A stretch of 64,000 bases of DNA from a virus. Shown here in pieces: positions 20,044-51,715 of this stretch (its first letter is position 1; each line of letters starts with the position of its first letter). The DNA is taken from IMG/VR virus record IMGVR_UViG_3300020156_000022, positions 1 through 64,000 of that record. The stretch is one strand, 5' to 3'. Position numbers and translations under genes: made by a program. The notes under the pieces are model-generated. The model searched no databases. It had not been told where the DNA came from and was given only the letters and a program-made list of their open reading frames with translations.

Positions 20044-20238
20044 CTAATTACTATTATCGGCCTCAGAGATAAACTTAATATACTCGACTTGAGCCCAGGT
20101 AAGCAATAGGGCTAGCAAAATACTAGGAATAAGAAATACTAGATTACCATCTACAGCTATCACAATAGCTATGAACCAACTAAAGCCCATAGATGCCATT
20201 AGCAATTTTTCGAACCTATTAACCGTCGTTCTCTCCAT
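20044..20238 (-). CDS. Membrane protein, 64 aa, starts two bases after a tRNA
   Basis: Two transmembrane segments (FSWFIAIVIAVDGNLVFLIP, ILLALLLTWAQV). The ATG follows the acceptor stem of tRNA-Ser(GCT) as discriminator-C-ATG with no Shine-Dalgarno. One of ten such junctions. Confidence 0.7.
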   Translation of the reverse strand: MERTTVNRFEKLLMASMGFSWFIAIVIAVDGNLVFLIPSILLALLLTWAQVEYIKFISEADNSN

Positions 20239-20240
20239 GA

Positions 20241-20321
20241 GGAAGATAAAGGAATCGAACCCTCACCCTTGCGGACGGCACTCCTTAGCAAGGAGTTTCA
20301 CTGACCTCAGCGCTATCTTCC
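20241..20321 (-). tRNA. tRNA-Ser(GCT)
   Basis: Acceptor GGAAGAT/ATCTTCC, anticodon loop TTGCTAA on a five-pair stem, long variable arm, T-loop TTCGATT. No encoded CCA. Confidence 0.93.
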
Positions 20322-20348
20322 AGGTGCCCGTCTTTCCGAGCTGTCAAC

Positions 20349-20377
20349 AGTATACAGCATCTCTCAGCGTACTGCAA
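20349..20377 (-). promoter_or_regulatory. Promoter TTGCAG-N17-TATACT
   Basis: -35 at 20372-20377, -10 at 20349-20354; drives tRNA-Ser(GCT) and the genes below it. Confidence 0.65.
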
Positions 20378-20380
20378 CAC

Positions 20381-20479
20381 CTACTCACGAGGCATAGAGC
20401 ATTTCACACACTTCTTAGCTTCATAAGTATTAGACTTACTACAGAAATAGCAAATCCATCCAAAAATACTTAGCGACAT
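20381..20479 (-). CDS. Micro zinc-ribbon protein, 32 aa
   Basis: CYFCSKSNTYEAKKCVKC: two C-x2-C pairs. RBS AAGGAA. Confidence 0.65.
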   Translation of the reverse strand: MSLSIFGWICYFCSKSNTYEAKKCVKCSMPRE

Positions 20480-20481
20480 AG

Positions 20482-20781
20482 TCAATTCCTTATCATATAA
20501 CGACGACCCCATATGGTTATATCACCTTTTAGCGTTGCCTTGATTACACGATGATGGCCGTTATAAAGGAATAATTTATATGTCCACATAACTACATGGA
20601 CATAATCATCATCTGTAGGATTACGTTTACTCGTCTGGAATAGTTGAGCAATAACTAAACAGTCCTGAGTCAAATAAAGCTCATTGAATCTTATTAATTC
20701 AATAGAGCAATTCATCCAAGACTCAGGACCATCAGGCAGTTCTTTACGATCTACTATTCCCGCAAAGGGGAAATTACTCAT
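20482..20781 (-). CDS. ParB/Srx-fold-like protein, 99 aa
   Basis: N-terminal beta strand and TQDCLVIAQLF followed by LFLYNGHHRVIKATLKGD fit the ParB-like core (tQ... GHHR...A...G). Such domains are DNA-binding or nuclease-like; the helix-turn-helix of true ParB is missing. Confidence 0.7.
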   Translation of the reverse strand: MSNFPFAGIVDRKELPDGPESWMNCSIELIRFNELYLTQDCLVIAQLFQTSKRNPTDDDYVHVVMWTYKLFLYNGHHRVIKATLKGDITIWGRRYMIRN

Positions 20782-21218
20782 TCGTAGAAAGTAACCAAAC
20801 GTTCTTGAGGTTTTACTTCAGTAGTGTCGCCATCAAGATAACCACCATCGTAAGAAGCGTACCAGCCATCCTTACGGAAATAGCGAGTAGTTAGTCCATC
20901 AGAAATAGAAACAACCACCCAATACTGATCTCCTTCACCTTCACCACCATGCTCGGCTACTCGCTCAGCAGTCCAGTCGTCAACGGTGTACTTACCACCT
21001 TCATACTTAACCTGCTTCCAAGCTGATTCGTTCTCTTCCAGATTAGAGAAATCGTCATCCTCATCTAAGTCGTATTCAGCCCTTAGACTATCTTGCCAGG
21101 TCTGCCCATCACGATAGCTATACTTAGACTGATACTCAGCATGAGCGCCAGCCAGGATAACCTCTAGTGCCTTTGAAGCAGCTTCACTTACTGACATATC
21201 GTTTAGTGACTTTTGCAT
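20778..21218 (-). CDS. Member 1 of a tandem paralogue family, 146 aa
   Basis: Shares with 21444, 21778 and 22152 a C-terminal module: a V-x-V strand, then S-Y-x-G, a W/Y-D-G patch, and a basic patch ending in F/Y-E or W-E (here VKPQERLVTFYE). The N-terminal half is variable and acidic. Function unknown. Confidence 0.75.
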   Translation of the reverse strand: MQKSLNDMSVSEAASKALEVILAGAHAEYQSKYSYRDGQTWQDSLRAEYDLDEDDDFSNLEENESAWKQVKYEGGKYTVDDWTAERVAEHGGEGEGDQYWVVVSISDGLTTRYFRKDGWYASYDGGYLDGDTTEVKPQERLVTFYE

Positions 21219-21338
21219 TTATTTTCTTCTTCCCTTTGTTGGTCCAGGACACCTTGATTTATCTTGAGGATTGTTTGTTTCTGTGCCGCAATCTCGACAT
21301 ATCCAATGCTTATGCCCTTTATATTCCCACCAGTGCAT
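21219..21338 (-). CDS. Small zinc-ribbon protein, 39 aa
   Basis: HWICRDCGTETNNPQDKSRC. Close paralogue of 21319-21447, which it overlaps. Confidence 0.65.
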   Translation of the reverse strand: MHWWEYKGHKHWICRDCGTETNNPQDKSRCPGPTKGRRK

Positions 21339-21447
21339 TATAGCTCCTTACATAAGGGCAAGGGGACTTATCCTGTGAGGTTGAACTTTGTGTTTTGTAT
21401 GCCTTACACACCCACAACTTACCTTTACGTTCCCACTGATGTGTCAT
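21319..21447 (-). CDS. Small zinc-ribbon-like protein, 42 aa
   Basis: MTHQWERKGKLWVCKAYKTQ then SQDKSPCPY; same layout as 21219-21338 but the second Cys of the first pair is Tyr, so metal binding may be lost. ATG overlaps the upstream stop. Confidence 0.6.
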   Translation of the reverse strand: MTHQWERKGKLWVCKAYKTQSSTSQDKSPCPYVRSYNALVGI

Positions 21448-21785
21448 TGAACTTCCTCATATACAATAATAGTTTTTTCTTGAGGCACAACGATTTTTAA
21501 TCCGTCGTCCCATTCAGAGCCAATGTAAGATGTATATTTGCCTGTAGCCTTGTACAGAAGTCCACCAATAAGGAATACAATCCACAGATCTTCGGACCAG
21601 CCATCGTAGTTCTTATCCTGATCATAGGTATGTCCATCAACAACTCTAACTAAGCCTAGGCCAGGAATGTTATATTCCTTACCGATGAAGCTATAGTAAT
21701 TTTGATAGAAACCAAAGCTGCCCCATCCATCAACTTCTTCAGCATATTGAAGTAGGGCAGCTTTAATCAGTGCTGGATCAAACAT
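21444..21785 (-). CDS. Member 2 of the tandem paralogue family, 113 aa
   Basis: C-terminus IVFLIGGLLYKATGKYTSYI then VVPQEKTIIVYEEVQ matches member 1. Overlaps member 3 by eight bases. Confidence 0.75.
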   Translation of the reverse strand: MFDPALIKAALLQYAEEVDGWGSFGFYQNYYSFIGKEYNIPGLGLVRVVDGHTYDQDKNYDGWSEDLWIVFLIGGLLYKATGKYTSYIGSEWDDGLKIVVPQEKTIIVYEEVQ

Positions 21786-22155
21786 CAGTCCACTCCCAAG
21801 TGGTAACTACTTTCTCACGCTTTTCTACTTGTGAGATCTTGCTAATATCCCAAGACCATCCTTCATAAGAGGCATAGTAATAAGGAATCTTGAAGTTAGC
21901 TGAACTGCCATCAATACCTGTTACAGAAAAAACAATATAGCCATCATCAAGTGAGCGATACCCGTAAGAGTCATACTCCCTATTGATGTTAGTATGCTCA
22001 ATTTGTAGTTGGAAGTCAGTTACACCAGGTAGTTCAAACACATGACCAGCATCATACATAGGTAGATCTATGAGAGTGTTTTCCAGCTCGTAATAATCTT
22101 CTGAATCATCTTCAGGGGAAAACCAGCTTTTTATTTCTTCAATATTAGGAATCAT
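21778..22155 (-). CDS. Member 3 of the tandem paralogue family, 125 aa
   Basis: C-terminus YYYASYEGWSWD then EKREKVVTTWEWTDV. More acidic N-terminal half than its siblings. Confidence 0.75.
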   Translation of the reverse strand: MIPNIEEIKSWFSPEDDSEDYYELENTLIDLPMYDAGHVFELPGVTDFQLQIEHTNINREYDSYGYRSLDDGYIVFSVTGIDGSSANFKIPYYYASYEGWSWDISKISQVEKREKVVTTWEWTDV

Positions 22156-22559
22156 TCGAAAACGTCAATAACCTTCTGCTTAGGAGTTACTGGAAGCAGA
22201 TCCCCGTCCCAGGAGATTTCACCATAAGAATCACCGGTACCAGTCTTCTTAAAGAAGGAGTCGCCCACCTTGATAACTACGTAAACAGAAAATGTAGTAC
22301 CCTGAGGAAGCTCTCCGTCATAGAATCCAGCAGCATCGATGTCACCAGAATCGTAAGAAGTCTTACGAGCAACTACAGTAGCCTTTCGACCACCCATATC
22401 GAATGCTCGGCCAACAGGATAACCGTATCGAGTATTATCAGACTCGAAAATGCTCCAGCCACCTTGCTTAGTAACCCAAGCAGATAGCTCAGTAAGTAGG
22501 AAAGCTGGGTGGTCACTAGGAATTTCTGAATTACATAGCGGACAGTTAGCAGTAGTCAA
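22152..22559 (-). CDS. Member 4 of the tandem paralogue family, 135 aa
   Basis: Begins with an extra zinc knuckle (CPLCNSEIPSDH), then the shared module (VYVVIKVGDSFFKKTG, SWDGDLLPVTPKQKVIDVFE). First gene of the run. Confidence 0.75.
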   Translation of the reverse strand: MTTANCPLCNSEIPSDHPAFLLTELSAWVTKQGGWSIFESDNTRYGYPVGRAFDMGGRKATVVARKTSYDSGDIDAAGFYDGELPQGTTFSVYVVIKVGDSFFKKTGTGDSYGEISWDGDLLPVTPKQKVIDVFE

Positions 22560-22574
22560 TTTAATATCTCCAAT

Positions 22575-22685
22575 TTAATTCGCGAAAGAATTCAAGCAAC
22601 GCTGACAAGTAACCTTAGCCCAAACCTTAGTTACCTGGACTTGATCTGCCGGGCGATTACAGGCAGTCATTTGCTTGCTGAACAT
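22575..22685 (-). CDS. Micro Cys-containing protein, 36 aa
   Basis: VTCQRCLNSF pair plus one more Cys. Start at 22685 or the ATG five codons later; no strong RBS decides. Confidence 0.5.
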   Translation of the reverse strand: MFSKQMTACNRPADQVQVTKVWAKVTCQRCLNSFAN

Positions 22686-22693
22686 GTAGTGTA

Positions 22694-23494
22694 TCACATC
22701 ATGCCCTTCTTAGCCTTATCTAGAGGCTTCAGCTTATCTTTCTTAGCATAATGGATGTACATGTATGGGTGCGGAGTCTTAAAGTGCTCAAAGTTGGTAA
22801 CGATAAACCTGGCTGACTTGCCTTTTGTGAGAGACGTAATAGTCTTCTTCAGTGCAAGCTTATATGCTAATCCAGGACTGAACTTGTAATTTGTAGGAAT
22901 CATCCAACGCTCAAGAGCAGTCGCAGCAATCTCCTCACGGAATAGAAGAACCTGATCCTCAAAGGTCATGCCATTCCAGAGCTTATCAGGATCGATATCT
23001 ACAGTTTCTCCATTCTTCAAGATCCGCTCGTAAAGAGGACGATCATTGAAGGCTACAGAATCGTGAATACTGTCATGATCGTAAATTCGCACAACAGCAT
23101 CATCAAAAAAGTCTCCAGCAGCTTGAGCTAGGTTCATCTTCTTCTTACCGTGAGTTTTTTCCCAAACCCTATACAGCAGCTTGTGCAATTCCATATCCAG
23201 AACAGCACCATGATTCTTAAGGAACATCAAATCTACCATATGCTTATCCCAAGAACCGTTCTTCAGTTCCCAGTATGCATGAGAAACCTTAATAGTGTAA
23301 AGCTCATCAATGTTAGCAACATCATTGCGATCAAGCTGAGTACCTTCAAACAAAGGATGCCAGAATGGCTCAACCTTATCGTAGCCACTCACAAGAAAAG
23401 CCGGGGACTTGGTACCAAAAAAGTCTAGATCCTTGGGCTCACGGTAGCCGGGAAACCAGTAGTTCATTGCGACTGATCCAATAATCAGCGCCAT
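22694..23494 (-). CDS. Nucleotidyltransferase-like protein, 266 aa
   Basis: N-terminal IIGSVAMNYWFPGYREPKD with LDFF gives the G-S...D-x-D pattern of the polymerase-beta nucleotidyltransferase fold, and a later HMVDLMFLK could hold the third acid. Phage proteins of this kind are of unknown target; tRNA or a host protein is possible. RBS AAGGAGA. Confidence 0.7.
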   Translation of the reverse strand: MALIIGSVAMNYWFPGYREPKDLDFFGTKSPAFLVSGYDKVEPFWHPLFEGTQLDRNDVANIDELYTIKVSHAYWELKNGSWDKHMVDLMFLKNHGAVLDMELHKLLYRVWEKTHGKKKMNLAQAAGDFFDDAVVRIYDHDSIHDSVAFNDRPLYERILKNGETVDIDPDKLWNGMTFEDQVLLFREEIAATALERWMIPTNYKFSPGLAYKLALKKTITSLTKGKSARFIVTNFEHFKTPHPYMYIHYAKKDKLKPLDKAKKGMM

Positions 23495-23980: not shown

Positions 23981-23984
23981 AAGA

Positions 23985-24791: not shown

Positions 24792-24896
24792 CTAGTTGCA
24801 GCCCGAGCTAACTAGGGAAGAAATTCCTTCCCAGACCAAGAAGCCAATAATAGATCCCAGTAAAATTGCACTTATATCTGAAATTACATTTTTCAT
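24792..24896 (-). CDS. Membrane peptide, 34 aa, starts two bases after a tRNA
   Basis: MKNVISDISAILLGSIIGFL. ATG follows tRNA-Ile as discriminator A, C, ATG; no Shine-Dalgarno. Confidence 0.6.
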   Translation of the reverse strand: MKNVISDISAILLGSIIGFLVWEGISSLVSSGCN

Positions 24897-24898
24897 GT

Positions 24899-24970
24899 AC
24901 GCCATGAAGGAGTTGAACCCTCTACGCGCTGTTGATAAGACAGCCGCTCTAACCGTTGAGCTAATGGCGC
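24899..24970 (-). tRNA. tRNA, anticodon TAT (Ile)
   Basis: Acceptor GCGCCAT/ATGGCGT, D-arm GCTC/GAGC, stem GCTGT/ACAGC with loop CTTATCA, T-loop TTCAACT. Base 37 is C, not the usual A, which leaves the identity slightly open. Confidence 0.75.
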
Positions 24971-26882: not shown

Positions 26883-26951
26883 TTAAATGAAATTGTTGGG
26901 ATTGGTTATGCCTTTTATTTCAAGGGACCATCCATGCCCATACAATTTCAA
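26883..26951 (-). CDS. Peptide, 22 aa, TTG start two bases after tRNA-Tyr
   Basis: Reads MKLYGHGWSLEIKGITNPNN and ends FI. TTG follows the acceptor stem as discriminator A, C, TTG. The junction repeats the pattern of nine others; coding is plausible but not proven. Confidence 0.45.
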   Translation of the reverse strand: MKLYGHGWSLEIKGITNPNNFI

Positions 26952-26953
26952 GT

Positions 26954-27030
26954 GCTCCGTCTGAGAATCGAACTCAGCTAGCGCAAGCGCATCGGGGTTA
27001 CAGCCCAATATCTGTCCCAGCAGCCGAAGC
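26954..27030 (-). tRNA. tRNA-Tyr(GTA)
   Basis: Loop CTGTAAC on stem TTGGG/CCCGA, long variable arm TGCGCTTGCGC, T-arm CTGAG TTCGATT CTCAG. Acceptor GCTTCG/CGGAGC is six clean pairs and the D-arm is slightly irregular. Confidence 0.85.
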
Positions 27031-27060
27031 ATGGAGCCAAGTTTCCTTGGCTGTAGATCT

Positions 27061-35628: not shown

Positions 35629-35745
35629 TTAAAGTGGCCTCCAACATGAGCACTCACAAAGGTGCATCTTTTTTGCACAATCATAGTGCTTTCCTACAGA
35701 ACATGGCCAGCATTCCTTTTTAGGCTTAGGTAATTTAAAACTCAT
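35629..35745 (-). CDS. Cys-rich small protein, 38 aa
   Basis: CWPCSVGKHYDCAKKMHLCE then CSCW: six Cys and two His, enough for a zinc site. ATG overlaps the upstream stop. Confidence 0.6.
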   Translation of the reverse strand: MSFKLPKPKKECWPCSVGKHYDCAKKMHLCECSCWRPL

Positions 35746-35951
35746 GGAGCAATACCTGTGTCCCACTCGCATTGAGGATTTCCATCATCATCGCGGTCTT
35801 CATAATTCTCAAGCCAAGTTTCATAATGCTTGCCTGTCAGAATGCGAACTATTTGATCCAATATCCATTGCTTGTGGTGACTACCGTCAATTCCACCATA
35901 ATTCTCGATTAGGTCTAGTGTGCGCTCAATCTTACCTTCATCATCTGCCAT
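35742..35951 (-). CDS. Hypothetical protein, 69 aa, starts two bases after a tRNA-like RNA
   Basis: MADDEGKIERTLDLIENYGG, acidic C-terminus. ATG follows the terminal stem of the RNA at 35954 as discriminator G, C, ATG, exactly as at the true tRNAs. Confidence 0.75.
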   Translation of the reverse strand: MADDEGKIERTLDLIENYGGIDGSHHKQWILDQIVRILTGKHYETWLENYEDRDDDGNPQCEWDTGIAP

Positions 35952-35953
35952 GC

Positions 35954-36071
35954 GTAACGTACAGGAATTGAACCTGTTCCTGATACTCGCTCCTATTTCG
36001 CTTACTAGGTCCAGGATAGGACTCTTCGGGTACTCTGTCGGCTTTCTCTGTGCTACCGTACACCACGTCAC
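35954..36071 (-). ncRNA. Long tRNA-like RNA, 118 nt
   Basis: Acceptor GTGACGT/ACGTTAC, D-arm GTG-TACGGTAG-CAC, T-arm ACAGG TTCAATT CCTGT. The middle contains CCTAT/ATAGG and no standard anticodon arm. Followed by a start codon at the tRNA-type junction. Confidence 0.6.
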
Positions 36072-36437: not shown

Positions 36438-36945
36438 CGGATATGGTCTTTTGGATACCCTTAGCTTTTTTGTGGGGAGTATTCTCCTGTTCAGGCAGTG
36501 GATACTCTTCAAGTTCATTAACATAATGAAATGTCTCCGTGGCTATCCCAAATTTATCGGCCGCATCCCTACAACCTGTAGCACCGCTAGATCTGTCTTT
36601 AATAAAGGCTAGACATGCATCGGCATTTGATTTTTGAACCATTTGTAGATTACGAACTGGCCCAGCTCGCTTGCCATATTTTTTCCAGTCTGCCTGATAA
36701 ACAATCACTTTACACTTCAGTGTATTTCTAGCAAAAATATCAGCTAGCCTATCTGCCCCTCTAGGGCAACCACCATGGACTACAGTTAGCCACTCTGACA
36801 TAGGAATTTTACTGTATTCTGGGTTTTCCTGTAACCATTCGGCAATTGCTTGAATGATTCTATGCTTGATGCTTTCGAAATTGTCCCAGTCCCTTGAACC
36901 AGTAATAAGAATGACGAATTTTTTTCTCAAGGGCACCTCGGGCAT
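36427..36945 (-). CDS. SLOG-domain (DUF2493/YspA-like) protein, 172 aa
   Basis: Rossmann-like ILITGSRDWD, then VVHGGCPRGADRLADIFAR, then GPVRNLQMV and ADACLAF. The family binds nucleotides such as NAD or ADP-ribose derivatives and occurs in anti-phage or counter-defence settings. Fused partner absent. Confidence 0.82.
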   Translation of the reverse strand: MPEVPLRKKFVILITGSRDWDNFESIKHRIIQAIAEWLQENPEYSKIPMSEWLTVVHGGCPRGADRLADIFARNTLKCKVIVYQADWKKYGKRAGPVRNLQMVQKSNADACLAFIKDRSSGATGCRDAADKFGIATETFHYVNELEEYPLPEQENTPHKKAKGIQKTISDVS

Positions 36946-37166
36946 TTAAAATAACTCAACTTTAGACAGTCAGGGCATGTAGGTTTCTTGCAAGCAGGGC
37001 AAGGATCATCAATGCCACCATCAGTGTTTATCCATGCCACATTACATCTATTAACCTTGTATGCCCCACACAAAGTAATATGCGGATGACAACATAGTAG
37101 ATGGCAATATTTAATTTCATCGTTTGCCTGTAGCTCCTCTACAGGTCTTTCCTGTAAAGTTATCAT
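36927..37166 (-). CDS. Cys-rich zinc protein, 79 aa, starts two bases after tRNA-Glu
   Basis: Ten-plus Cys including CHLLCCHPH and CPACKKPTCPDCLK...CPRC. ATG follows tRNA-Glu(TTC) as discriminator A, C, ATG. Confidence 0.75.
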   Translation of the reverse strand: MITLQERPVEELQANDEIKYCHLLCCHPHITLCGAYKVNRCNVAWINTDGGIDDPCPACKKPTCPDCLKLSYFKCPRCP

Positions 37167-37168
37167 GT

Positions 37169-37239
37169 AGTCCCAGAGAGAATTGAACTCTCTTCCTGAG
37201 GGTGAAAACCTCAGATCCTAACCAATAGACGATGGGACC
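37169..37239 (-). tRNA. tRNA-Glu(TTC)
   Basis: Acceptor GGTCCCA/TGGGACT, loop TTTTCAC on stem TGAGG/CCTCA, T-arm GAGAG TTCAATT CTCTC. Confidence 0.92.
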
Positions 37240-37933: not shown

Positions 37934-39553
37934 TCAGATTCGACCTGCTGAGAAGTCAGCGATCACTGACGGAGCGTTGGTGTCGAAACCTGCAACATTC
38001 AGGGTGCCGTTCACATCGTTAGGGTCGCCTACAGTAAACGGAGTAGCTGCCGCACCTACAACTACCAGCTTGGCGTCAATACCCATCTTCTGACGATAAT
38101 CCTTCAATGCACGCTCAGGCTTAATACGTCCAGCCCAAGTTTCGTTGTCGGTGTAAATCTGGAAGGTGTCAACTTCAATCTTGTTCTGCAATGCCCAAAC
38201 CATAGGCTGAGCAATATCAGTACCACCAAATGCCTGACCCTGCAACTTGCGGTTAACAGTAGCCAGATCCATCTTAGCAGTAATACCAAGATCACGGAAG
38301 GAAGTTGAGAAGCCCATGATCTGATACCAAGGCTCAACACGAGCAGTAACCATAGCCATAGCAGCAGTCACCTGTGCACAGCTTAGATCAATACCCAGTG
38401 CCGCAGAACCCATAGAACCAGAAACATCCAGAGCAAGCAAGGTTCGCTTGTTAGCAGGAGTAATGGACTTGAATGCAGCGTGGAATCCAGCATCCAAAGC
38501 ATCAGCAATTACAGGATTAGTTACCCAGTCCTTCTTACGAGTAATTGCATACCAACCATAAGACTCATTACGCTGCATCTGGCCCTCAGTATGAGTAACC
38601 AGAGCTAGAAGATACTGGATTGGGTGAAGACGAGTCTTCGCAATCATGTCAGAATCAACTAGAGCATTAGCAACTGCACGGGTAAACACCATATCGTTGA
38701 ATGCGCCAATACGAGAAAGGCGAGTAATCTGACGAACAAGTGCCTGACCCTTAAGCTGACCGTTAGCGAAAAGCTGCTTCCAAACCTCAGGCTCCTTAAG
38801 GAACTGAGTAGGAATAGTCTCCCAAGGAAGGTTAGTGAAACGCCCCAGAATATCGATAGCCTCAACAGAAGAAGAAGCAAGCTGCATCTTCTGAAAACCA
38901 TCGATAATGTCAGAATCGCCGTCTAGATCAATAAAGACAGGCTTACCAAGGATAAAATTACCTACACGTTGATCAACGCCAGTAGGGTGAGACAGGCGCA
39001 TAAGGTCACGCATAGTCCAACCATCACGCTGACGGTATTTAACAGCCTGGTACGCAAGCTGGTCAGCAGTCTTAGACTCAAACCACTTAGAGATTGCACG
39101 ACGCTTTGCACGACCCCAACCTCCAAGACCTTCGATGAAGGCAGCAAGCTGGTAAACGTGAGTAGCGATACGAGCAACCCTAGGAGCAGCCTCAACTACG
39201 GCCTGCTTAATACCCTGAACAGCCTCAGGCTCAGAAAGCATAAGAGCTAGGACGAAAATAGCAGCCTCGTTACGGTAGGCACGCCCCTTGTCGGACACGT
39301 CAATAACAGTAGCGAGAACAGTCTTAGGGTCCTTAGCGATCATCTTACGGATGAAGTCGACGTTCTGCTTAGTAAGATCCTTCTCACCCACGTAGTAGGT
39401 GCCCTTATCGGTACCAAGAATAAGGAAACGCTCAAGGCGCTGAATGTCAGATACTTCGAAAACGTAACCACCAGCGTTGTTCTTCACCTCATCGGAACGA
39501 GACTTCTCACGCTGAGTAGGTACAGCAGTAGAAAAATTCTTTAGTGCAGACAT
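37934..39553 (-). CDS. rsr: Ro60/TROVE-domain protein (Rsr), 539 aa
   Basis: N-terminal two-thirds: helical TROVE ring (GGYVFEVSDIQRLERFLILG, TYYVGEKDLTKQN, LMRLSHPTG, QYLLALVTHTEGQM). C-terminal von Willebrand A domain with a MIDAS site (LLALDVSGSMGSAALG, then GGTDIAQPM, and IYTDNETW). Start at 39553 after GAAAGG; the frame is open further upstream only because it runs through the RNA genes. Ro proteins bind misfolded RNAs and Y RNAs and can direct exonucleases; a Y-RNA-like permuted tRNA lies directly upstream. Confidence 0.93.
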   Translation of the reverse strand: MSALKNFSTAVPTQREKSRSDEVKNNAGGYVFEVSDIQRLERFLILGTDKGTYYVGEKDLTKQNVDFIRKMIAKDPKTVLATVIDVSDKGRAYRNEAAIFVLALMLSEPEAVQGIKQAVVEAAPRVARIATHVYQLAAFIEGLGGWGRAKRRAISKWFESKTADQLAYQAVKYRQRDGWTMRDLMRLSHPTGVDQRVGNFILGKPVFIDLDGDSDIIDGFQKMQLASSSVEAIDILGRFTNLPWETIPTQFLKEPEVWKQLFANGQLKGQALVRQITRLSRIGAFNDMVFTRAVANALVDSDMIAKTRLHPIQYLLALVTHTEGQMQRNESYGWYAITRKKDWVTNPVIADALDAGFHAAFKSITPANKRTLLALDVSGSMGSAALGIDLSCAQVTAAMAMVTARVEPWYQIMGFSTSFRDLGITAKMDLATVNRKLQGQAFGGTDIAQPMVWALQNKIEVDTFQIYTDNETWAGRIKPERALKDYRQKMGIDAKLVVVGAAATPFTVGDPNDVNGTLNVAGFDTNAPSVIADFSAGRI

Positions 39554-39575
39554 TTGGCTTCTAGCCTTTCTGTTA

Positions 39576-39693
39576 GAACGAATATGTATGGATGATTGGG
39601 GTGCCCTACCATTTTGGGCGTCTGGTTGATCTGCGTACAGCCTACCAGACAGGGATCGAACCTGCAAGATAACCAATCAAGATCGACTCGTTC
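39576..39693 (-). ncRNA. Y RNA (YrlA-like), circularly permuted tRNA
   Basis: Order from 5': stem strand GAACGA...TGATTGG, T-arm GCAGG TTCGATC CCTGT, hairpin CTGGTAG...CAACCAG in the acceptor position, D-arm GCCC-AAAATGGTA-GGGC, stem strand CCAATCA...TCGTTC. The two ends pair (TGATTGG/CCAATCA seven, GAACGA/TCGTTC six) where a tRNA has its anticodon stem. It ends about 20 bases before the Ro60 start, so it lies in that gene's leader. Confidence 0.7.
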
Positions 39694-39958: not shown

Positions 39959-39985
39959 AGTAATTGATGAATATGGGAGCGTAAA

Positions 39986-40114
39986 CGAATAATATACAGA
40001 CGCTCTGCCATTGAGCTATACCCCGTTCATCTATATAGCGTTGTTTGCGCTAGTCGGGGCAGGAGGATTCGAACACTCCAACATTCTGTTTCCTCAGATA
40101 ATCGTATTACTTCG
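39986..40114 (-). ncRNA. Second Y-RNA-like permuted tRNA
   Basis: 5' strand CGAAGTAATA and ACAGA, T-arm around TTCGAAT, acceptor hairpin TGCCCCG...CGGGGTA with an inner TAGCG/CGCTA stem, canonical D-arm GCTC-AATGGCA-GAGC, then TCTGT and TATTATTCG. The ends pair as ACAGA/TCTGT and CGAA-TAATA/TATTATTCG. Permuted order as in 39576-39693. Confidence 0.55.
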
Positions 40115-40522: not shown

Positions 40523-40621
40523 TTTAAATCTCCACAAGATTAGTAATTAATTAATAGAAGTGAACATGTAAGTGAAAAACGGGTTTTTAAGTGCTGCCAT
40601 TACACCACCCGCCCATGAAAT

Positions 40622-40683
40622 GGACGAGCTGGGATTCGAACCCAGACCTTTCCTTTATAAGAGAAGATAACCGTTATTCGTTC
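40622..40683 (-). pseudogene. tRNA relic, anticodon TAT, D-arm shortened
   Basis: T-arm CTGGG TTCGAAT CCCAG intact, loop CTTATAA, acceptor GAACGAA/CTCGTCC with two A-C mismatches, and only 62 nt because most of the D-arm is missing. Confidence 0.5.
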
Positions 40684-40695
40684 GGCTCACTAAGA

Positions 40696-40771
40696 TCTCC
40701 TGGCAGGACTCGAACCTGCATGAGGGGTGGCACTAATCCTCGCCAACGTCTACCAATTCCGCCACAGGAGA
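40696..40771 (-). tRNA. tRNA-Leu-like, atypical anticodon arm
   Basis: Acceptor TCTCCTG/CAGGAGA, D-arm GGCGGAATTGGTAGACG typical of Leu, T-loop TTCGAGT. Best anticodon stem TGGCG/TGCCA leaves an eight-base loop AGGATTAG and the long variable arm is missing. Confidence 0.6.
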
Positions 40772-40848
40772 AAATTACTTCGAATATGTGTTGATGATGG
40801 TTATTTTTATTTTCAGTAAGATAAACCAACATCTCCGACTCGAATTGT

Positions 40849-40921
40849 GTTTCTGGCAGGAATCGAACCTGCTACCTTCGCTGTATATATTACGCTGCTC
40901 AATCCAATGAGCTACAGAAAC
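40849..40921 (-). tRNA. tRNA-like, irregular anticodon arm (TAT?)
   Basis: Acceptor GTTTCTG/CAGAAAC, D-arm GCTC/GAGC, T-arm GCAGG TTCGATT CCTGC all good. The anticodon stem GCGT/ACAGC needs a bulged A over loop AATATAT. May be a defective or unusual tRNA. The 190 bases 3' of tRNA-Glu (40925-41110) hold no gene, only a CATCGG/CCGATG stem. Confidence 0.5.
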
Positions 40922-42171: not shown

Positions 42172-42486
42172 TTACTTAATACCTAGTTCCTTCAGAATAA
42201 GGTCATGCTCTACTGCATGGAATACATGCTCAGGAATCTTAACTCGATAGACCATCTTTTCGAATTCGTAGCTAATACTCATCTCTAATTCTTGATGCAT
42301 ACCATCGCTATCGAGAAAAGCATTAGCTGCTTGGAGACGCTTAGTAATTTCGGGCAAAGCTTCAGAACGAACTTTTACCCATCGACCCTTATAAGTTCTG
42401 TCAAAAATGCCGAAGCCATTAGTGAATAACCCTATAACTAGGATAATTCCTAAGACTACTATTAGGGTTTCTAACCAATCAGACAT
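42172..42486 (-). CDS. Membrane protein, 104 aa, starts two bases after tRNA-Leu
   Basis: MSDWLETLIVVLGIILVIGL anchor, then a soluble alpha/beta part. ATG follows tRNA-Leu(TAA) as discriminator A, C, ATG. Confidence 0.75.
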   Translation of the reverse strand: MSDWLETLIVVLGIILVIGLFTNGFGIFDRTYKGRWVKVRSEALPEITKRLQAANAFLDSDGMHQELEMSISYEFEKMVYRVKIPEHVFHAVEHDLILKELGIK

Positions 42487-42488
42487 GT

Positions 42489-42569
42489 ACTCACGGTGGG
42501 ATTCGAACCCACAATCCTTTCGGCGCAGCATTTTAAGTGCTGAGTGTATACCAGTTCCACCACGCGAGC
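42489..42569 (-). tRNA. tRNA-Leu(TAA)
   Basis: Acceptor GCTCGCG/CGTGAGT, loop CTTAAAA on CAGCA/TGCTG, long variable arm, T-arm GTGGG TTCGAAT CCCAC. Confidence 0.93.
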
Positions 42570-46646: not shown

Positions 46647-46826
46647 CTAGACCTCGATAAACCCTGTACCTTTACAGCCTTTACAAGAACCTTTAGCTGT
46701 TTGCCCGTTATTACAGCCCGCACAACGCAACTTATTGCCTTTTTGCATTCGCTTCTTTAAAGGATACCTGTTATCTCGCGGTGCGACCTCGTGTGGGGGT
46801 GTATTACCCTCTTTATAGCGAGCCAT
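46647..46826 (-). CDS. DnaJ-type zinc-finger peptide, 59 aa
   Basis: CAGCNNGQTAKGSCKGCKGT then GF: two CxxC-x-G units. TAATG coupling to 46826-47005. Confidence 0.65.
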   Translation of the reverse strand: MARYKEGNTPPHEVAPRDNRYPLKKRMQKGNKLRCAGCNNGQTAKGSCKGCKGTGFIEV

Positions 46827-47005
46827 TAGGATTTATCTCCCTTATGGGAACCCTTATCACGGGAATGGTCTGGCTTACTGCCACCACCAGTAGTTCCTCT
46901 ACGACTAGTGTTAGTTCCTTTAGTCCAACGCCTTTCCACTTTCTGGGCATATTCCTCAAGCTGATCGGCAGACAGGTTCTTCTTATCGTCATCCTTTTTA
47001 GTCAT
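46826..47005 (-). CDS. Charged disordered protein, 59 aa, starts two bases after tRNA-Arg
   Basis: MTKKDDDKKNLSADQLEEYA then Gly/Ser/Lys-rich. ATG follows tRNA-Arg as discriminator G, C, ATG. Confidence 0.65.
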   Translation of the reverse strand: MTKKDDDKKNLSADQLEEYAQKVERRWTKGTNTSRRGTTGGGSKPDHSRDKGSHKGDKS

Positions 47006-47007
47006 GC

Positions 47008-47079
47008 ACCCCTGACAGGATTCGAACCTGCGATTTACAGTTTAGAAGACTGTTGAGTTATCCGCTACTCTACAGGGGC
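47008..47079 (-). tRNA. tRNA-Arg(TCT)
   Basis: Acceptor GCCCCTG/CAGGGGT, loop CTTCTAA on ACAGT/ACTGT, T-arm GCAGG TTCGAAT CCTGT. Confidence 0.93.
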
Positions 47080-47129
47080 ATTAAATTAGTTTTGAGTTTA
47101 AAGCGACCAAAACTATAAACAAACTTCGT

Positions 47130-47197
47130 GCATCGAGCGGGTTCGAACCGTATCTCTGGGTATGACCCCAGCGCATTTCCCTAATGCTACTCGATAC
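47130..47197 (-). tRNA. tRNA-Met-like(CAT), six-base anticodon loop
   Basis: Acceptor GTATCGA/TCGATGC, D-arm GCAT/ATGC, stem CTGGG/CCCAG with only GTCATA between. T-stem weak (three pairs) around TTCGAAC. Confidence 0.55.
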
Positions 47198-48144: not shown

Positions 48145-48313
48145 GCCAGGCTCGGCTGCCACTATTACTGCATATCGTTAAGCCTGTGCTAGGTCATTCG
48201 CCTACTTGCAGCATTGAGCTTATAGTTATCATACGTGCTTTGTCAACAGCCTTACTGTATACGCGCGCCGTTCGACGTAGTTTATTACATTGTGGAATGT
48301 GATATACTTGCGT

Positions 48314-48384: not shown

Positions 48385-48436
48385 ATAGTAAGCGCAAGTG
48401 CGTCCAGTTTGCCCGGTCCTCGCGCTTACATCTACT

Positions 48437-48465
48437 ACTTTACATCGTCTTGGCTAGCTTGTCAA
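48437..48465 (-). promoter_or_regulatory. Promoter TTGACA-N17-TAAAGT
   Basis: -35 at 48460-48465 overlaps the stop of the upstream gene; -10 at 48437-48442; drives tRNA-Ala. After the -10: AGTAGATGTAAGC, shared with the promoter at 52107, then a GTAAGCGC/GCGCTTAC hairpin. Confidence 0.75.
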
Positions 48466-48626
48466 CCCTCTAGACTCATAGAATTTGCCAGAAGGATGTA
48501 GCCCTTTGCTGCTTCAGCCAATGCTTGAAGTCGATTCGCTTGAGCTTCACTCAAGTTGTAGCCCTGCGAGTCTTTTACCTTCTTCAGGCATTCCTCTGCT
48601 GACCTGAGTGCTTCATTTCGTGTCAT
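48462..48626 (-). CDS. Small helical protein, 54 aa, leaderless
   Basis: MTRNEALRSAEECLKKVKDS. ATG six bases after the -10 at 48633-48638, no Shine-Dalgarno. Confidence 0.7.
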   Translation of the reverse strand: MTRNEALRSAEECLKKVKDSQGYNLSEAQANRLQALAEAAKGYILLANSMSLEG

Positions 48627-48632
48627 GCACCT

Positions 48633-48661
48633 AGCCTACAGGACTCTGACAGGATCGTCAA
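48633..48661 (-). promoter_or_regulatory. Promoter TTGACG-N17-TAGGCT
   Basis: -35 at 48656-48661, -10 at 48633-48638; predicted start of RNA coincides with the ATG at 48626. Confidence 0.72.
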
Positions 48662-48674
48662 GGCTACGTATCTG

Positions 48675-48878
48675 TTATTTCTTAAATCTTCCTCGGCCTA
48701 TAGCTCGTTGACTAATCAAATCAAGTAACTGCTCACGAATATCCATATTACGATTAAGAATTTTACGAGTATTAGCGATAGTAGTCTGACAGTTTGCTAT
48801 GGCCGTCTCGACATCTAATAACTCTTCAGACAACTCTTTATCTGACCAATCACCGTAATCTGGTTGTTCAGTAAGCAT
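48675..48878 (-). CDS. Helical acidic/basic protein, 67 aa
   Basis: ELSEELLDVETAIANCQTTI coiled helix and a basic RGRFKK end. Confidence 0.72.
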   Translation of the reverse strand: MLTEQPDYGDWSDKELSEELLDVETAIANCQTTIANTRKILNRNMDIREQLLDLISQRAIGRGRFKK

Positions 48879-48882
48879 TTAT

Positions 48883-49488
48883 CTATTCCTTTTCATTTGG
48901 GTAAACATCATAGATCTTAAAATTATCAAAGGATCGGCTTATAGTTGGCCCAGCCTGGTACTGATAGTGCGATCCAGCTGCTCTTGAACCATACAACAAA
49001 GTAGTCGGCTCTGGTAAGTGGTAGAAGCCAAGTTGACTAACTTTCATACCTGGCCATAACAACAAAGGCATAGTTCCACTATTACTTAATTCTAAGGTAA
49101 TTTGCCCTTCAAATCCTGGATCAATAAACCCCGCAGTAGCATGAATAACCAACCCTAGCCTGCCTAAAGAACTTTTACCCTCAAGCTTAGCGGCTATGTT
49201 AGCACCTAATGCAATAGTTTCAAAGGTACAACCTAGCACAAATGCTCCTGGCTCTAATACAAATGCAGAACCCTTTGGAACAAATACATCTGTAAAGTAA
49301 TCAGTTGAGTCTTCTTTAGGATCTACCAACGGCGCGTCCGCAGGGGAATCAAATTGTAACTGTACCTTAAACTCAGGAGAAAGTGTCATATCATAACTGG
49401 CAGGCTGAATTAGCTCTTCCCTGAAAGGCTGGATGATAATATTTTGGAATCTAATCTCTTCAAGAATTCCTCTATTAGATACTAGCAT
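48883..49488 (-). CDS. dcd: dCTP deaminase (Dcd-like), 201 aa
   Basis: Trimeric dUTPase/Dcd fold: SYDMTLSPEF, EGKSSLGRLGLVIHATAG, IDPGFEGQITLELSN carrying the catalytic Glu and the substrate Ser/Arg. Deaminates dCTP to dUTP, feeding dUMP to ThyA. Whether it also cleaves dUTP, as bifunctional forms do, cannot be told here. Confidence 0.9.
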   Translation of the reverse strand: MLVSNRGILEEIRFQNIIIQPFREELIQPASYDMTLSPEFKVQLQFDSPADAPLVDPKEDSTDYFTDVFVPKGSAFVLEPGAFVLGCTFETIALGANIAAKLEGKSSLGRLGLVIHATAGFIDPGFEGQITLELSNSGTMPLLLWPGMKVSQLGFYHLPEPTTLLYGSRAAGSHYQYQAGPTISRSFDNFKIYDVYPNEKE

Positions 49489-49714
49489 GATCTTCTCTCC
49501 ATTCTAGTTTCACCTTGCCGCTTTCATGGAAAGCAAGATCAAGTATGGTATTATTATATACCTTTACCAGATCAATCTCAATCTTTTTACCTAAAGGTAC
49601 ATATTTTCTTAGCAATGCCGCTGCGACAGCCTCATAGATTCTTACTTTTTCTTCAAGCACATCAAAAGACCTGGATGCTAGGTACTCATCCAGGTCTATA
49701 AATTCATTTGACAT
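49475..49714 (-). CDS. Hypothetical protein, 79 aa
   Basis: Overlaps the dcd start by 14 bases. LDEYLASRSFDVLEEKVRIY; mixed alpha/beta. Confidence 0.72.
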   Translation of the reverse strand: MSNEFIDLDEYLASRSFDVLEEKVRIYEAVAAALLRKYVPLGKKIEIDLVKVYNNTILDLAFHESGKVKLEWREDHASI

Positions 49715-49732
49715 TACTTACCTTTCTCAAGA

Positions 49733-49804
49733 AAATAGGAGCCGCATCGACAAACAACTTGCGGATCTTTGCCTACAAGTTATCCTGGAGGTTGGCTCCT
49801 ATTT
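49733..49804 (-). terminator. Long hairpin terminator
   Basis: Arms aaataggagcc / ggctcctattt around about 50 bases with an inner stem, two bases after the nuclease stop. Confidence 0.6.
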
Positions 49805-49805
49805 G

Positions 49806-50156
49806 CTAGTATGCCTTATATTCAGCATGTCCAGCACTGACCATTCGATCATTGATGCTAGGAGTTTTAGTAGGGTCTTCTCCCCAAAGCCATAACTCTC
49901 CTAAATATCGGCCATACTTTTCTTTTTTATCCTTGGTAGTCATAACATATAGATACTTAAAACTACCATCAGGATTAGTAAGTAATTTCAATAACCATGC
50001 CCTGGCATTCTTACCGGCTTGTGTGGGTAGCTCAGGAGCATTAATTCTGTTGAATCTAATATGCATGTCTTGAAGAAGATCACAACCAGCGTCTCGCCTT
50101 ATTGTGATTGTATCAGCATCATAGACAGTTAAGATTTCAGCAGGGTAATCATACAT
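49806..50156 (-). CDS. Staphylococcal-nuclease-like protein, 116 aa
   Basis: Start MYDYPAEI at 50156 after GGGAG. VYDADTITIRRD, RFNRINAPEL (catalytic Arg/Glu), KYGRYLGELW (second Arg) and the end SINDRMVSAGHAEYKAY follow the SNase fold. No signal peptide, so it acts inside the cell on DNA or RNA. Confidence 0.87.
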   Translation of the reverse strand: MYDYPAEILTVYDADTITIRRDAGCDLLQDMHIRFNRINAPELPTQAGKNARAWLLKLLTNPDGSFKYLYVMTTKDKKEKYGRYLGELWLWGEDPTKTPSINDRMVSAGHAEYKAY

Positions 50157-50279
50157 ATTTATCTCCCATCGTATAAGAGATAAATCGGTAATAATTGAGG
50201 GTTGCAACTTCCAGTACAGCCGTGCAGCTTTCCCGGTTAACCAGATAGCTTTCTCACCTGTTCGTGGACCTCAATAAGA

Positions 50280-50357
50280 GCAGATAGGCGGAATCGAACC
50301 GCAGACATAAGACGCCTTTTGCAGAGGCGCGGCTATCACCAATAACCTTCTATCTGC
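50280..50357 (-). tRNA. tRNA-Cys(GCA)
   Basis: Acceptor GCAGATA/TATCTGC, loop CTGCAAA on CGCCT/AGGCG, T-loop TTCGATT. About 120 bases above (50160-50279) hold no gene. Confidence 0.92.
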
Positions 50358-50392
50358 ACGTAAAGAATAATATTATTCTTTACTAATAGAAT

Positions 50393-50503
50393 TTACTTTT
50401 TACCAGTACCTTTACATGCATTACAATCTATAGGAGGAAGACTATTACGTTCAAAAAACCCTCTACCTCTACATGACATACATATTTCTTTTTCTTTTTC
50501 CAT
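50393..50503 (-). CDS. DnaJ-type zinc-finger peptide, 36 aa, starts two bases after tRNA-Thr
   Basis: CMSCRGRG and CNACKGTG. ATG follows tRNA-Thr(GGT) as discriminator T, C, ATG. Confidence 0.65.
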   Translation of the reverse strand: MEKEKEICMSCRGRGFFERNSLPPIDCNACKGTGKK

Positions 50504-50505
50504 GA

Positions 50506-50579
50506 GCCACCAGAGAGAATCGAACTCTCGACCTTTTCCGTACCAAGGAAACACTCTGACCAAACTGAGCTATGGCGGC
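50506..50579 (-). tRNA. tRNA-Thr(GGT)
   Basis: Acceptor GCCGCCA/TGGTGGC, loop TTGGTAC on TTTCC/GGAAA, T-arm GAGAG TTCGATT CTCTC. Confidence 0.93.
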
Positions 50580-50667
50580 AAAACTAGTTTTTAGAAGCAG
50601 CCATTTCCCTTCCGGGCGGTACTGTGGAGAGACCCTTAGTTTCAAGGCTGAACTAGAAACCTTCCGA

Positions 50668-50741
50668 GCGGCCAGTGTGGCTCGAACACACTACTCTCTG
50701 CTTACGAGGCAGGGGCTTTAACCTGATTAAGCTACAGCCGC
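50668..50741 (-). tRNA. tRNA-Thr(CGT)
   Basis: Acceptor GCGGCTG/TGGCCGC, loop CTCGTAA on CTGC/GCAG, T-arm GTGTG TTCGAGC CACAC. Confidence 0.88.
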
Positions 50742-50745
50742 AATA

Positions 50746-50904
50746 TTAGTTAGACAATCTTTTTTGTTTTGTGCCGCAAGGCACATGAGTAACTACCTTA
50801 TTCTTGATTCTCCATCCACGAGTGCCTTTGCAATTGTCGCACACCCTAGGACCATTCTCATCAATGAGTCTTCCTCCGATTGTTGCATTATCTGTATTTG
50901 CCAT
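50746..50904 (-). CDS. Zinc-ribbon-like protein, 52 aa, starts two bases after tRNA-Gly
   Basis: CDNCKGTRGW and a lone CG later. ATG follows tRNA-Gly(TCC) as discriminator T, C, ATG. Confidence 0.65.
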   Translation of the reverse strand: MANTDNATIGGRLIDENGPRVCDNCKGTRGWRIKNKVVTHVPCGTKQKRLSN

Positions 50905-50906
50905 GA

Positions 50907-50976
50907 GCGGAAGACGGGAATCGAACCCGCGACAAAACGTTGGAAGCGTCTTATGTTACCTCTACACCACATCCGC
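50907..50976 (-). tRNA. tRNA-Gly(TCC)
   Basis: Acceptor GCGGATG/CTTCCGC, loop CTTCCAA on AGACG/CGTTT, T-loop TTCGATT. Confidence 0.9.
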
Positions 50977-51146
50977 ATTGGTGCAACCGTACAGCCTGCG
51001 AGAATCTATTAGGCACGATTCTCATTGTCCTAGTGCCTGTAGGGACCAGCTTATCGGTTGCGTTGAGAAGTTTTCTAAGGCATAAGCCTCGCATCTGAGC
51101 GGCCACTCTAGCATTAGCGCCCACCTATTCTCCCAAATCTCCGCGA

Positions 51147-51216
51147 GCGGCTAACGAGAATCGAACTCGTGCTTAAACCTTGGCAAGGTTTCGTGATACC
51201 ATTTCACTATAGCCGC
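51147..51216 (-). tRNA. tRNA-Gly(GCC)
   Basis: Acceptor GCGGCTA/TAGCCGC, loop TTGCCAA on AAACC/GGTTT, T-loop TTCGATT. Confidence 0.93.
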
Positions 51217-51225
51217 AATATTTAC

Positions 51226-51342
51226 TTATAGAAGTTTCTTGTCTATATAACCATTCTTACACTTGCCAGGACAATCTTTTATTTTGCCTGCTTTAACTAT
51301 AAAGCCCCTACCTCTACATGTCAAGCACATGACCAAGGCCAT
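51226..51342 (-). CDS. DnaJ-type zinc-finger peptide, 38 aa
   Basis: CLTCRGRGFIVKAGKIKDC then PGKCKNG. Same class as 12220, 46647 and 50393. Confidence 0.6.
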   Translation of the reverse strand: MALVMCLTCRGRGFIVKAGKIKDCPGKCKNGYIDKKLL

Positions 51343-51347
51343 AAAAG

Positions 51348-51512
51348 TTAACCTCTTTTTCTAGGAGTATTCTTTACTCTTTTAATAAAGTCTTGTTGAT
51401 TTTTCTTTGAAGTAGTTGCCAACAACGCAGCCGCATCTTCAAATTTCTTTTCTCTCAGAAGAGAGGCAGCAGTAAGATTAGCTTTTTTATCTAAACTGCT
51501 ATGCTTTCCCAT
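51348..51512 (-). CDS. Small basic protein, 54 aa
   Basis: Start MGKHSSLDKK at 51512 after TTGGAGG, overlapping the upstream gene. Helical, Lys-rich. Confidence 0.65.
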   Translation of the reverse strand: MGKHSSLDKKANLTAASLLREKKFEDAAALLATTSKKNQQDFIKRVKNTPRKRG

Positions 51513-51639
51513 TGCGCTTAGCCTCCAAGTATTCTGCTTCTGAAAGCTTTGCTTTTGCAAGGTTTCTTATAGAAGGAGTCTTAGCTGCTTTACGTGTAGC
51601 TTTATTTAATTTTGTCCAAGGATCTTTTTTCTTAAGCAT
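51499..51639 (-). CDS. Small basic protein, 46 aa, starts two bases after tRNA-Asp
   Basis: MLKKKDPWTKLNKATRKAAK. ATG follows tRNA-Asp(GTC) as discriminator G, C, ATG. Confidence 0.65.
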   Translation of the reverse strand: MLKKKDPWTKLNKATRKAAKTPSIRNLAKAKLSEAEYLEAKRNGKA

Positions 51640-51641
51640 GC

Positions 51642-51715
51642 GCGACTGAAGGGATTTGAACCCTCGATCTCTTGATTGACAATCAAGTGCTTTAACCAGG
51701 CTAAGCTACAACCGC
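51642..51715 (-). tRNA. tRNA-Asp(GTC), copy 1
   Basis: Acceptor GCGGTTG/CAGTCGC, loop TTGTCAA on CTTGA/TCAAG, T-loop TTCAAAT. Confidence 0.9.

What the first reader, a model, noticed from the sequence alone, without database searches (positions are those of the whole stretch)
20044..51715. tRNA genes that end exactly at a start codon: discriminator-C-AUG junctions
At Ser(GCT) 20241, Ile 24899, Tyr 26954 (TTG), Glu(TTC) 37169, Leu(TAA) 42489, Arg 47008, Thr(GGT) 50506, Gly(TCC) 50907, Asp 51642 and the tRNA-like RNA at 35954, the sequence after the acceptor stem is always one discriminator base, then C, then the start codon of an ORF. Ten out of ten have the same spacing, and most have no Shine-Dalgarno. 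If RNase Z cuts after the discriminator, the downstream mRNA begins 5'-C-AUG and would be translated leaderless, a mode known in actinobacteria. This would tie tRNA maturation to expression of a small protein.
Basis: partly seen in the sequence, partly recalled or inferred. Interest (0 to 1): 0.88.

Follow-up and report, generated by a model that had tools for sequence, protein, structure and literature searches.

The report
tRNA ends set leaderless gene starts
In this phage and many other tRNA-rich viruses of actinobacteria, small protein genes begin exactly where a tRNA gene ends, so trimming the tRNA out of the transcript should also create the start of the protein's messenger RNA, much as tRNAs punctuate the messages of animal mitochondria.

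Summary
All 28 ARAGORN tRNAs in the window carry one C after the discriminator (C74). In 8 of them, and in one tRNA-like RNA, an ATG ORF of 34-104 aa starts right after that C. The two TTG cases are not ORFs.

The spacing is not chance. In 15 tRNA-rich actinophages, 48 ATG/GTG ORFs start exactly after C74 against 5.6 expected (p=2e-29), in 32 ORF families next to 19 kinds of tRNA. None occurs in 8 non-actinobacterial phages. TTG is at chance, which matches the published codon rule for leaderless starts in mycobacteria. These ORFs lack a Shine-Dalgarno; most orthologues lying away from a tRNA have one.

C74 is invariant even where no ORF follows, and in host chromosomal tRNA genes (138/138). 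Published 5'-end mapping in an actinobacterium shows tRNA 3' cleavage between the two Cs. The likeliest cut is after C74, leaving mRNA that begins exactly with AUG/GUG.

Neither the cut nor translation has been shown in infected cells. It works like mitochondrial tRNA punctuation; I found no description of it in phages or bacteria in the papers searched.

The parts
20240..20321 (-). tRNA-Ser(gct); C74 at 20239
   Evidence: ARAGORN; Rfam 28.7 bits, just under cut-off
20044..20238 (-). ORF of 64 aa, ATG directly after C74; hydrophobic protein
   Evidence: weak PHROG matches of unknown function
24898..24970 (-). tRNA-Ile(tat); C74 at 24897
24792..24896 (-). ORF of 34 aa, ATG directly after C74; weak, no relative found
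35953..36071 (-). tRNA-like RNA with 7-bp acceptor stem and T-arm-like hairpin; C at 35952
   Evidence: fold; acceptor stem differs on both sides in relative G001 but still pairs
35742..35951 (-). ORF of 69 aa, ATG directly after the C
   Evidence: 78% identical in G001 with C-ATG intact; PHROG 23179, E=1.5e-7, unknown function
37168..37239 (-). tRNA-Glu(ttc); C74 at 37167
36927..37166 (-). ORF of 79 aa, ATG directly after C74; cysteine-rich
   Evidence: 63% identical in G001 behind the same tRNA with the same junction; dN 0.26, dS saturated
42488..42569 (-). tRNA-Leu(taa); C74 at 42487
42172..42486 (-). ORF of 104 aa, ATG directly after C74
   Evidence: 32% identical copy in G002, away from a tRNA
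47007..47079 (-). tRNA-Arg(tct); C74 at 47006
46826..47005 (-). ORF of 59 aa, ATG directly after C74
   Evidence: no relative found
50505..50579 (-). tRNA-Thr(ggt); C74 at 50504
50393..50503 (-). ORF of 36 aa, ATG directly after C74; zinc-ribbon-like
   Evidence: 40% identical to the G001 ORF behind tRNA-Gly(tcc), also at C-ATG; weak DnaJ CXXCXGXG match
50906..50976 (-). tRNA-Gly(tcc); C74 at 50905
50746..50904 (-). ORF of 52 aa, ATG directly after C74; its stop lies 4 nt before tRNA-Thr(cgt), so it is flanked by tRNAs on both sides
51641..51715 (-). tRNA-Asp(gtc); C74 at 51640
51499..51639 (-). ORF of 46 aa, ATG directly after C74
   Evidence: 55% identical in G001 behind the same tRNA with the same junction, dN 0.35, dS 1.05
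26952..27037 (-). tRNA-Tyr(gta) with C74, followed by TTG: not accepted as a junction, 22 codons only
   Evidence: the same trailer follows Lys tRNAs in G002 and G003 and looks non-coding

Best explanation
This is tRNA punctuation in a phage. tRNA genes and small protein genes are transcribed together. The host's tRNA-maturation machinery cuts the precursor on the 3' side of the tRNA, most likely between C74 and the next base. This leaves a tRNA to which the nucleotidyltransferase adds CA, and a downstream RNA whose 5' end is exactly AUG or GUG. Actinobacterial ribosomes translate such leaderless messages without a Shine-Dalgarno, so one cut matures the tRNA and frees the small gene for translation. 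Shown here by sequence: the exact spacing and its excess over chance, invariant C74, the AUG/GUG-only rule, coding constraint in several orthologue pairs, no Shine-Dalgarno at the junction and usually one in displaced orthologues. Inferred: co-transcription, the cut and its position, the enzyme, and translation.
For: Offset peak at exactly C74+1 in 15 actinophages: 36 ATG and 12 GTG ORFs against 0-7 at other offsets; 48 against 5.6 expected, 32 ORF families, 19 tRNA kinds. Independent IMG/VR sample: open frame after C74 in 47/77 ATG, 39/78 GTG, 19/95 TTG, 25/101 off-by-one CCATG (p=2e-8 and 1.5e-6); confined to loci with C74-only tRNAs. Orthologue pairs with dN/dS below 1 and ATG/GTG switches. 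No Shine-Dalgarno at junctions, present in most displaced orthologues. C74 in 468/473 phage and 138/138 host tRNAs. tRNA spacing never below C74. Cleavage between the Cs in P. acnes (PMC3848588). RTG at the 5' end necessary and sufficient in M. smegmatis (PMC4633059). Only 2 of 48 junctions have a -10 motif inside the tRNA.
Against: No RNA, ribosome or peptide data from an infected cell. P. acnes is not the host, and its cut was reported for CCA-encoding tRNAs and only suggested for the rest. The published leaderless rule was measured on transcripts made by promoters, not on processed 5'-monophosphate ends. Most tRNAs of these phages have no ORF at C74. Several window ORFs have no detected relative. 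Some displaced orthologues show only weak Shine-Dalgarno pairing.
Confidence: 0.72

Rival explanations
1. One reading: RNase Z cuts after the discriminator, the whole CCA is added, and the message begins 5'-C-AUG and is translated as nearly leaderless.
For: RNase Z cuts after the discriminator in most bacteria studied, and is stated to be present in M. tuberculosis (PMC10673834). Streptomyces and Micromonospora encode RNase Z-like proteins just under the curated cut-off. All junction evidence except the invariance of C74 fits equally.
Against: It does not explain why C74 is invariant in tRNAs without an ORF and in host tRNAs, why tRNA spacing never goes below C74, or the mapped cut between the Cs in P. 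acnes. One extra 5' base departs from the published RTG-at-the-end rule.
Confidence: 0.17
2. The junction is only a recombination or packing seam: genes are gained next to tRNA 3' ends and the tight spacing has no role in expression.
For: Phage genomes are compact, and unrelated ORFs appear behind the same tRNA in different phages.
Against: The peak is one position wide. ATG and GTG interchange while TTG is not used. The Shine-Dalgarno is missing at the seam and usually present elsewhere. The seam is absent in non-C74 lineages.
Confidence: 0.05
3. A promoter inside the 3' half of the tRNA gene makes a leaderless transcript that starts at the ATG.
For: Leaderless transcripts made by promoters are common in the host group, for example 17% in S. 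lividans (PMC8079986).
Against: Only 2 of 48 junctions have TANNNT in the right place, and the sequence there is fixed by the acceptor stem.
Confidence: 0.03
4. The ORFs are translated from the uncut transcript by internal initiation or by coupling to upstream translation.
For: Several ORFs show coding constraint, so they are translated somehow.
Against: The start would lie against a stable acceptor stem. Internal initiation would not demand one exact offset nor exclude TTG, which leadered genes here do use (21 of 122 best-scored starts).
Confidence: 0.03

Closest known systems
Mitochondrial tRNA punctuation (animal mtDNA; tRNAs excised by RNase P and RNase Z/ELAC2 release leaderless mRNAs)
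   Same: tRNA excision defines the 5' end of messages, start codons lie at or next to the tRNA end, messages are leaderless; some ORFs here also have a tRNA just after the stop (9 of 48 within 40 nt).
   Different: A virus of bacteria with bacterial ribosomes; applies to a minority of genes; most genes keep Shine-Dalgarno leaders; one fixed base (C74) lies between discriminator and start codon.
Leaderless translation in actinobacteria (Shell et al. 2015, PMC4633059)
   Same: AUG or GUG but not UUG; no Shine-Dalgarno; many small proteins.
   Different: There the 5' end is made by transcription initiation; here it would be made by tRNA processing.
tRNA 3' cleavage between the Cs in Propionibacterium acnes (PMC3848588)
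   Same: A cut after C74 of an actinobacterial tRNA, exactly where these ORFs begin.
   Different: Reported on host chromosomal tRNAs, enzyme unknown, with no link to a downstream start codon.
MazF-made leaderless mRNAs (E. coli, discussed in PMC3848588)
   Same: An endonuclease creates a leaderless message after transcription.
   Different: A toxin that cuts mRNA, not tRNA maturation.

Membership tests
tRNA punctuation (mitochondrial type) | Start codon at or within a few bases of a tRNA 3' end | tested here: met
   Exact offset in 48 actinophage ORFs
tRNA punctuation (mitochondrial type) | tRNAs flank most protein genes of the genome | tested here: not met
   Only 8 of 28 window tRNAs plus one tRNA-like RNA have a junction ORF; most genes have no tRNA neighbour
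tRNA punctuation (mitochondrial type) | tRNA processing releases the message | not testable with these tools
   Needs 5'-end mapping
Actinobacterial leaderless genes | AUG or GUG start; UUG not used | tested here: met
   rule from PMC4633059
Actinobacterial leaderless genes | No Shine-Dalgarno upstream of the start | tested here: met
Actinobacterial leaderless genes | Start codon at the very 5' end of the RNA | not testable with these tools
   Inferred from invariant C74 and the P. acnes cut site
Actinobacterial leaderless genes | 5' end made by a promoter with a -10 box about 7 nt upstream | tested here: not met
   TANNNT in 2 of 48
Classical RNase Z substrates (cut after the discriminator) | Base 74 not conserved in CCA-less tRNA genes | tested here: not met
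   C74 in 138/138 host and 468/473 phage tRNAs, against T 19, C 15, A 4, G 1 in non-CC tRNAs of other bacteria

The most novel reading that the evidence does not exclude
Actinobacteria and their phages mature tRNA 3' ends by a cut after C74, and the phages have repeatedly used that cut to make exactly leaderless AUG/GUG messages for dozens of unrelated small proteins: a bacterial form of tRNA punctuation that ties each small gene's output to tRNA maturation during infection.
Probability: 0.6. Interest if true: 0.86.

Novelty: new variant of a known kind. Interest (0 to 1): 0.78.

Why it matters
It would be a bacterial and viral counterpart of mitochondrial tRNA punctuation, which I could not find described, and a way to make leaderless messages without a promoter. 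It makes two open questions testable: where and by which enzyme actinobacteria cut tRNA 3' ends, and whether processed 5'-monophosphate ends are translated leaderlessly. It offers a reason beyond codon supply for phages to keep particular tRNA genes. It also gives an annotation rule: in Mildred21, by my comparison of its record table with the junction positions, one of five junction ORFs is annotated at the junction start, three start further downstream and one is missing.

Tried and rejected
The two TTG junctions: rejected, 22 and 13 codons, and TTG is at chance everywhere. First IMG/VR and genome-contig scans used a pattern one base too long (N12) and found CCATG; kept only as an off-by-one control and as a source of host genomes. 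Internal promoter: 2 of 48 have a -10 motif. Genome packing: the offset peak is one position wide. Shine-Dalgarno inside the acceptor stem: no stronger than at other tRNA ends, p=0.61. The first comparison with ordinary genes let each gene pick its best start, which favours strong sites; repeated with first-ATG starts only. A search of named phages for the 79-aa ORF found none. A C-ATG on the Streptomyces chromosome (tRNA-Asn) runs into a terminator-like hairpin and looks accidental. Rfam did not identify the tRNA-like RNA at 35953-36071. Ten literature searches of the open library found no report of tRNA-punctuated leaderless genes in phages or bacteria; most subscription journals are not held.
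Full report
What the window is. The window is bases 1-64000 of a 104,982-base viral contig. Its Ro60/TROVE protein is closest to Streptomyces phages, at up to 57% identity, and its nearest contigs are IMG/VR records of the same kind (G001, G002, G003). It carries 28 ARAGORN tRNAs in the window, all on the minus strand, and 29 in the whole record.

Checking the observation. Every one of the 28 tRNAs has a single C after the discriminator, none encodes CCA, and 8 go straight on into ATG. ARAGORN adds the C to the gene only when it is really there, as a test with altered tails showed. The eight ORFs have 34-104 codons. A ninth ATG junction follows a 119-nt tRNA-like RNA. In relative G001 its acceptor stem differs on both sides yet still pairs, and the 69-aa ORF is 78% identical with the C-ATG intact. 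The two TTG junctions open only 22 and 13 codons and should be dropped. So 'ten out of ten' is a selected list, but the feature is real: 8 of 29 tRNAs, p=3e-9.

A general rule in actinophages. I compared 15 tRNA-rich actinophages (of Streptomyces, Rhodococcus, Mycobacterium, Gordonia and Microbacterium, plus the window's contig and its three relatives) with 8 tRNA-rich phages of other bacteria. In the actinophages, ORFs of at least 30 aa start with ATG at offset 1 in 36 cases and with GTG in 12, while ATG at offsets 0 and 2-7 gives 1, 1, 1, 7, 1, 1 and 3. TTG at offset 1 is followed by such an ORF in 2 of 21 cases. The controls have none at offset 1; most of their tRNAs encode CCA, so the fair comparison is their 65 non-CC tRNAs. 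The 48 actinophage junctions fall into 32 ORF families behind 19 kinds of tRNA, against 5.6 expected, p=2e-29. Relatedness among phages is not removed from that p-value; the number of families is the safer measure.

An independent sample. Pattern scans of IMG/VR picked tRNA ends by sequence alone, without regard to ORFs. Of verified tRNAs, the frame was open for at least 30 codons in 47 of 77 with C-ATG, 39 of 78 with C-GTG, 19 of 95 with C-TTG and 25 of 101 with the off-by-one CCATG; about one in four is expected by chance. The effect is confined to loci whose tRNAs have C74 but not CCA: ATG 43/62, GTG 35/54, TTG 6/33. In mixed loci it is absent: ATG 3/13, GTG 2/16.

Are the ORFs genes? Orthologue pairs at the same junction have dN/dS below 1 wherever both could be computed, and most align from residue 1. 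The start codon switches between ATG and GTG in several pairs, such as G002/G003 Arg(tct) and Mildred21/EGole Leu(gag). Most proteins are small and have no known family; the Thr(ggt) ORF looks like a zinc ribbon. For several window ORFs (Ile, Arg, Ser) no clear relative was found.

No Shine-Dalgarno at the junction, but usually one elsewhere. Pairing with the 16S tail at junction starts is no stronger than at tRNA ends without an ORF (p=0.61) and weaker than at ordinary ATG genes (p=0.002 in each of two genomes). Orthologues that lie away from a tRNA give a natural experiment. The Leu(caa) ORF follows C74 in Mildred21 and Bmoc, but in EGole it is preceded by ACAGGAGAATTA. The Ser(gct) ORF follows C74 with GTG in two phages, but in EGole it starts 34 nt after the tRNA behind GGTGGAGAAGAA. 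The EGole Asp ORF has a copy in Mildred21 behind GAGGAAG. The G001 Glu(ctc) ORF has a copy in G002 that starts with TTG behind GAGAGG. There are exceptions: two G000 copies of that last ORF show only weak pairing, with an uncertain start.

Where is the cut? Three facts favour a cut one base later. First, C74 is invariant: 468 of 473 actinophage tRNAs and 138 of 138 chromosomal tRNAs of a Streptomyces, a Mycobacterium and a Micromonospora, including all 73 that lack CC; among 7 tRNAs from other actinobacterial loci one has T. In non-actinobacterial genomes the non-CC tRNAs have T 19, C 15, A 4, G 1. Second, consecutive tRNAs in the actinophages and in C74-type IMG/VR loci are never closer than one base, C74, with 49 cases exactly there, while mixed loci reach zero or overlap. 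Third, 5'-end mapping in Propionibacterium acnes found cleavage between the two Cs (PMC3848588); the paper reports this for CCA-encoding tRNAs and only suggests it for the rest. A cut after C74 leaves the message starting exactly at AUG or GUG, which is what M. smegmatis needs for leaderless translation, while TTG and CTG fail (PMC4633059). The enzyme is open: the Streptomyces and Micromonospora genomes have RNase Z-like proteins just under the curated cut-off, and P. acnes is reported to lack an obvious one.

How it most likely works. Shown by sequence: spacing, codon rule, invariant C74, coding constraint in several families, lack of a Shine-Dalgarno. Inferred: tRNA and ORF are in one transcript; tRNA 3' processing cuts after C74; the nucleotidyltransferase completes the CCA; the downstream RNA is a leaderless message. 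Nine of the 48 junction ORFs also have a tRNA within 40 nt after the stop codon, so some messages would be cut out on both sides; in the window this is the Gly(tcc) ORF, whose stop lies 4 nt before tRNA-Thr(cgt). The obvious consequence is that the small protein is made only when the tRNA is processed, but nothing here shows that this is used for regulation.

Comparison and novelty. It works like mitochondrial tRNA punctuation but is not a member of that system: most phage genes are not tRNA-flanked and the machinery is bacterial. It follows the rules of actinobacterial leaderless translation, but with a processed rather than a promoter-made 5' end, since a -10 motif is present in only 2 of 48. 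In ten searches of the open library I found no description of it in phages or bacteria.

Limits. No RNA, ribosome or peptide data were available. Hosts of the IMG/VR contigs are inferred from relatives. An ORF cut-off of 30 codons admits chance ORFs; one of the 48, in BlueNGold, overlaps the next tRNA and is doubtful. The tRNA-like RNA rests on two sequences only.

Noticed in passing
37934-39676 (-), 39575-39691 (-), 39979-40108 (-), 40589-40688 (-), about 41011 (-): A Ro60/TROVE gene with candidate Y RNAs next to it: sub-threshold YrlA matches (29.8 bits, E=0.002, just upstream of the likely Ro60 start) and a recurring G[GA]G[CT]CGAA...GTTATC motif that in this phage, Mildred21 and EGole often sits directly after a tRNA or tRNA-like gene.
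   Followed up: partly
L370-L419 (host chromosomes), all actinophage loci: Base 74 is C in practically every actinobacterial tRNA gene, including those without CCA; this suggests a lineage-wide rule of tRNA 3' maturation.
   Followed up: yes
26883-26951 (-); G002 after Lys(ctt) 22139; G003 after Lys(ctt) 54239 and Thr(ggt) 51375: A shared short trailer, about TTGTATGGGCATRG...CCCCTTG, follows C74 of different tRNAs in this phage and its relatives; it looks non-coding and is unexplained.
   Followed up: no
40694-40771, 40847-40921, 47128-47197 (-): tRNA-like genes with anticodon loops that ARAGORN cannot assign (four-base or two-base anticodons); some may be Y RNA or other tRNA-like modules.
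   Followed up: no
35953-36071 (-): A 119-nt tRNA-like RNA with a long insert between acceptor stem and T-arm, conserved in G001, matching no Rfam family.
   Followed up: partly
L060:29974-44258 (Mildred21): GenBank annotation misses or shortens most junction ORFs: one of five starts at the junction, three start further downstream, one is absent.
   Followed up: partly
Comrade (L098), record about 77362: One predicted tRNA-Ser(cga) with an odd acceptor stem has ATG directly after the discriminator, without C, and a 61-codon frame; possibly a mis-set tRNA end.
   Followed up: no
2128-2215 (-): A weak Rfam tRNA match (31.4 bits) far from the cluster that ARAGORN does not call; it too is followed by a C.
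   Followed up: no
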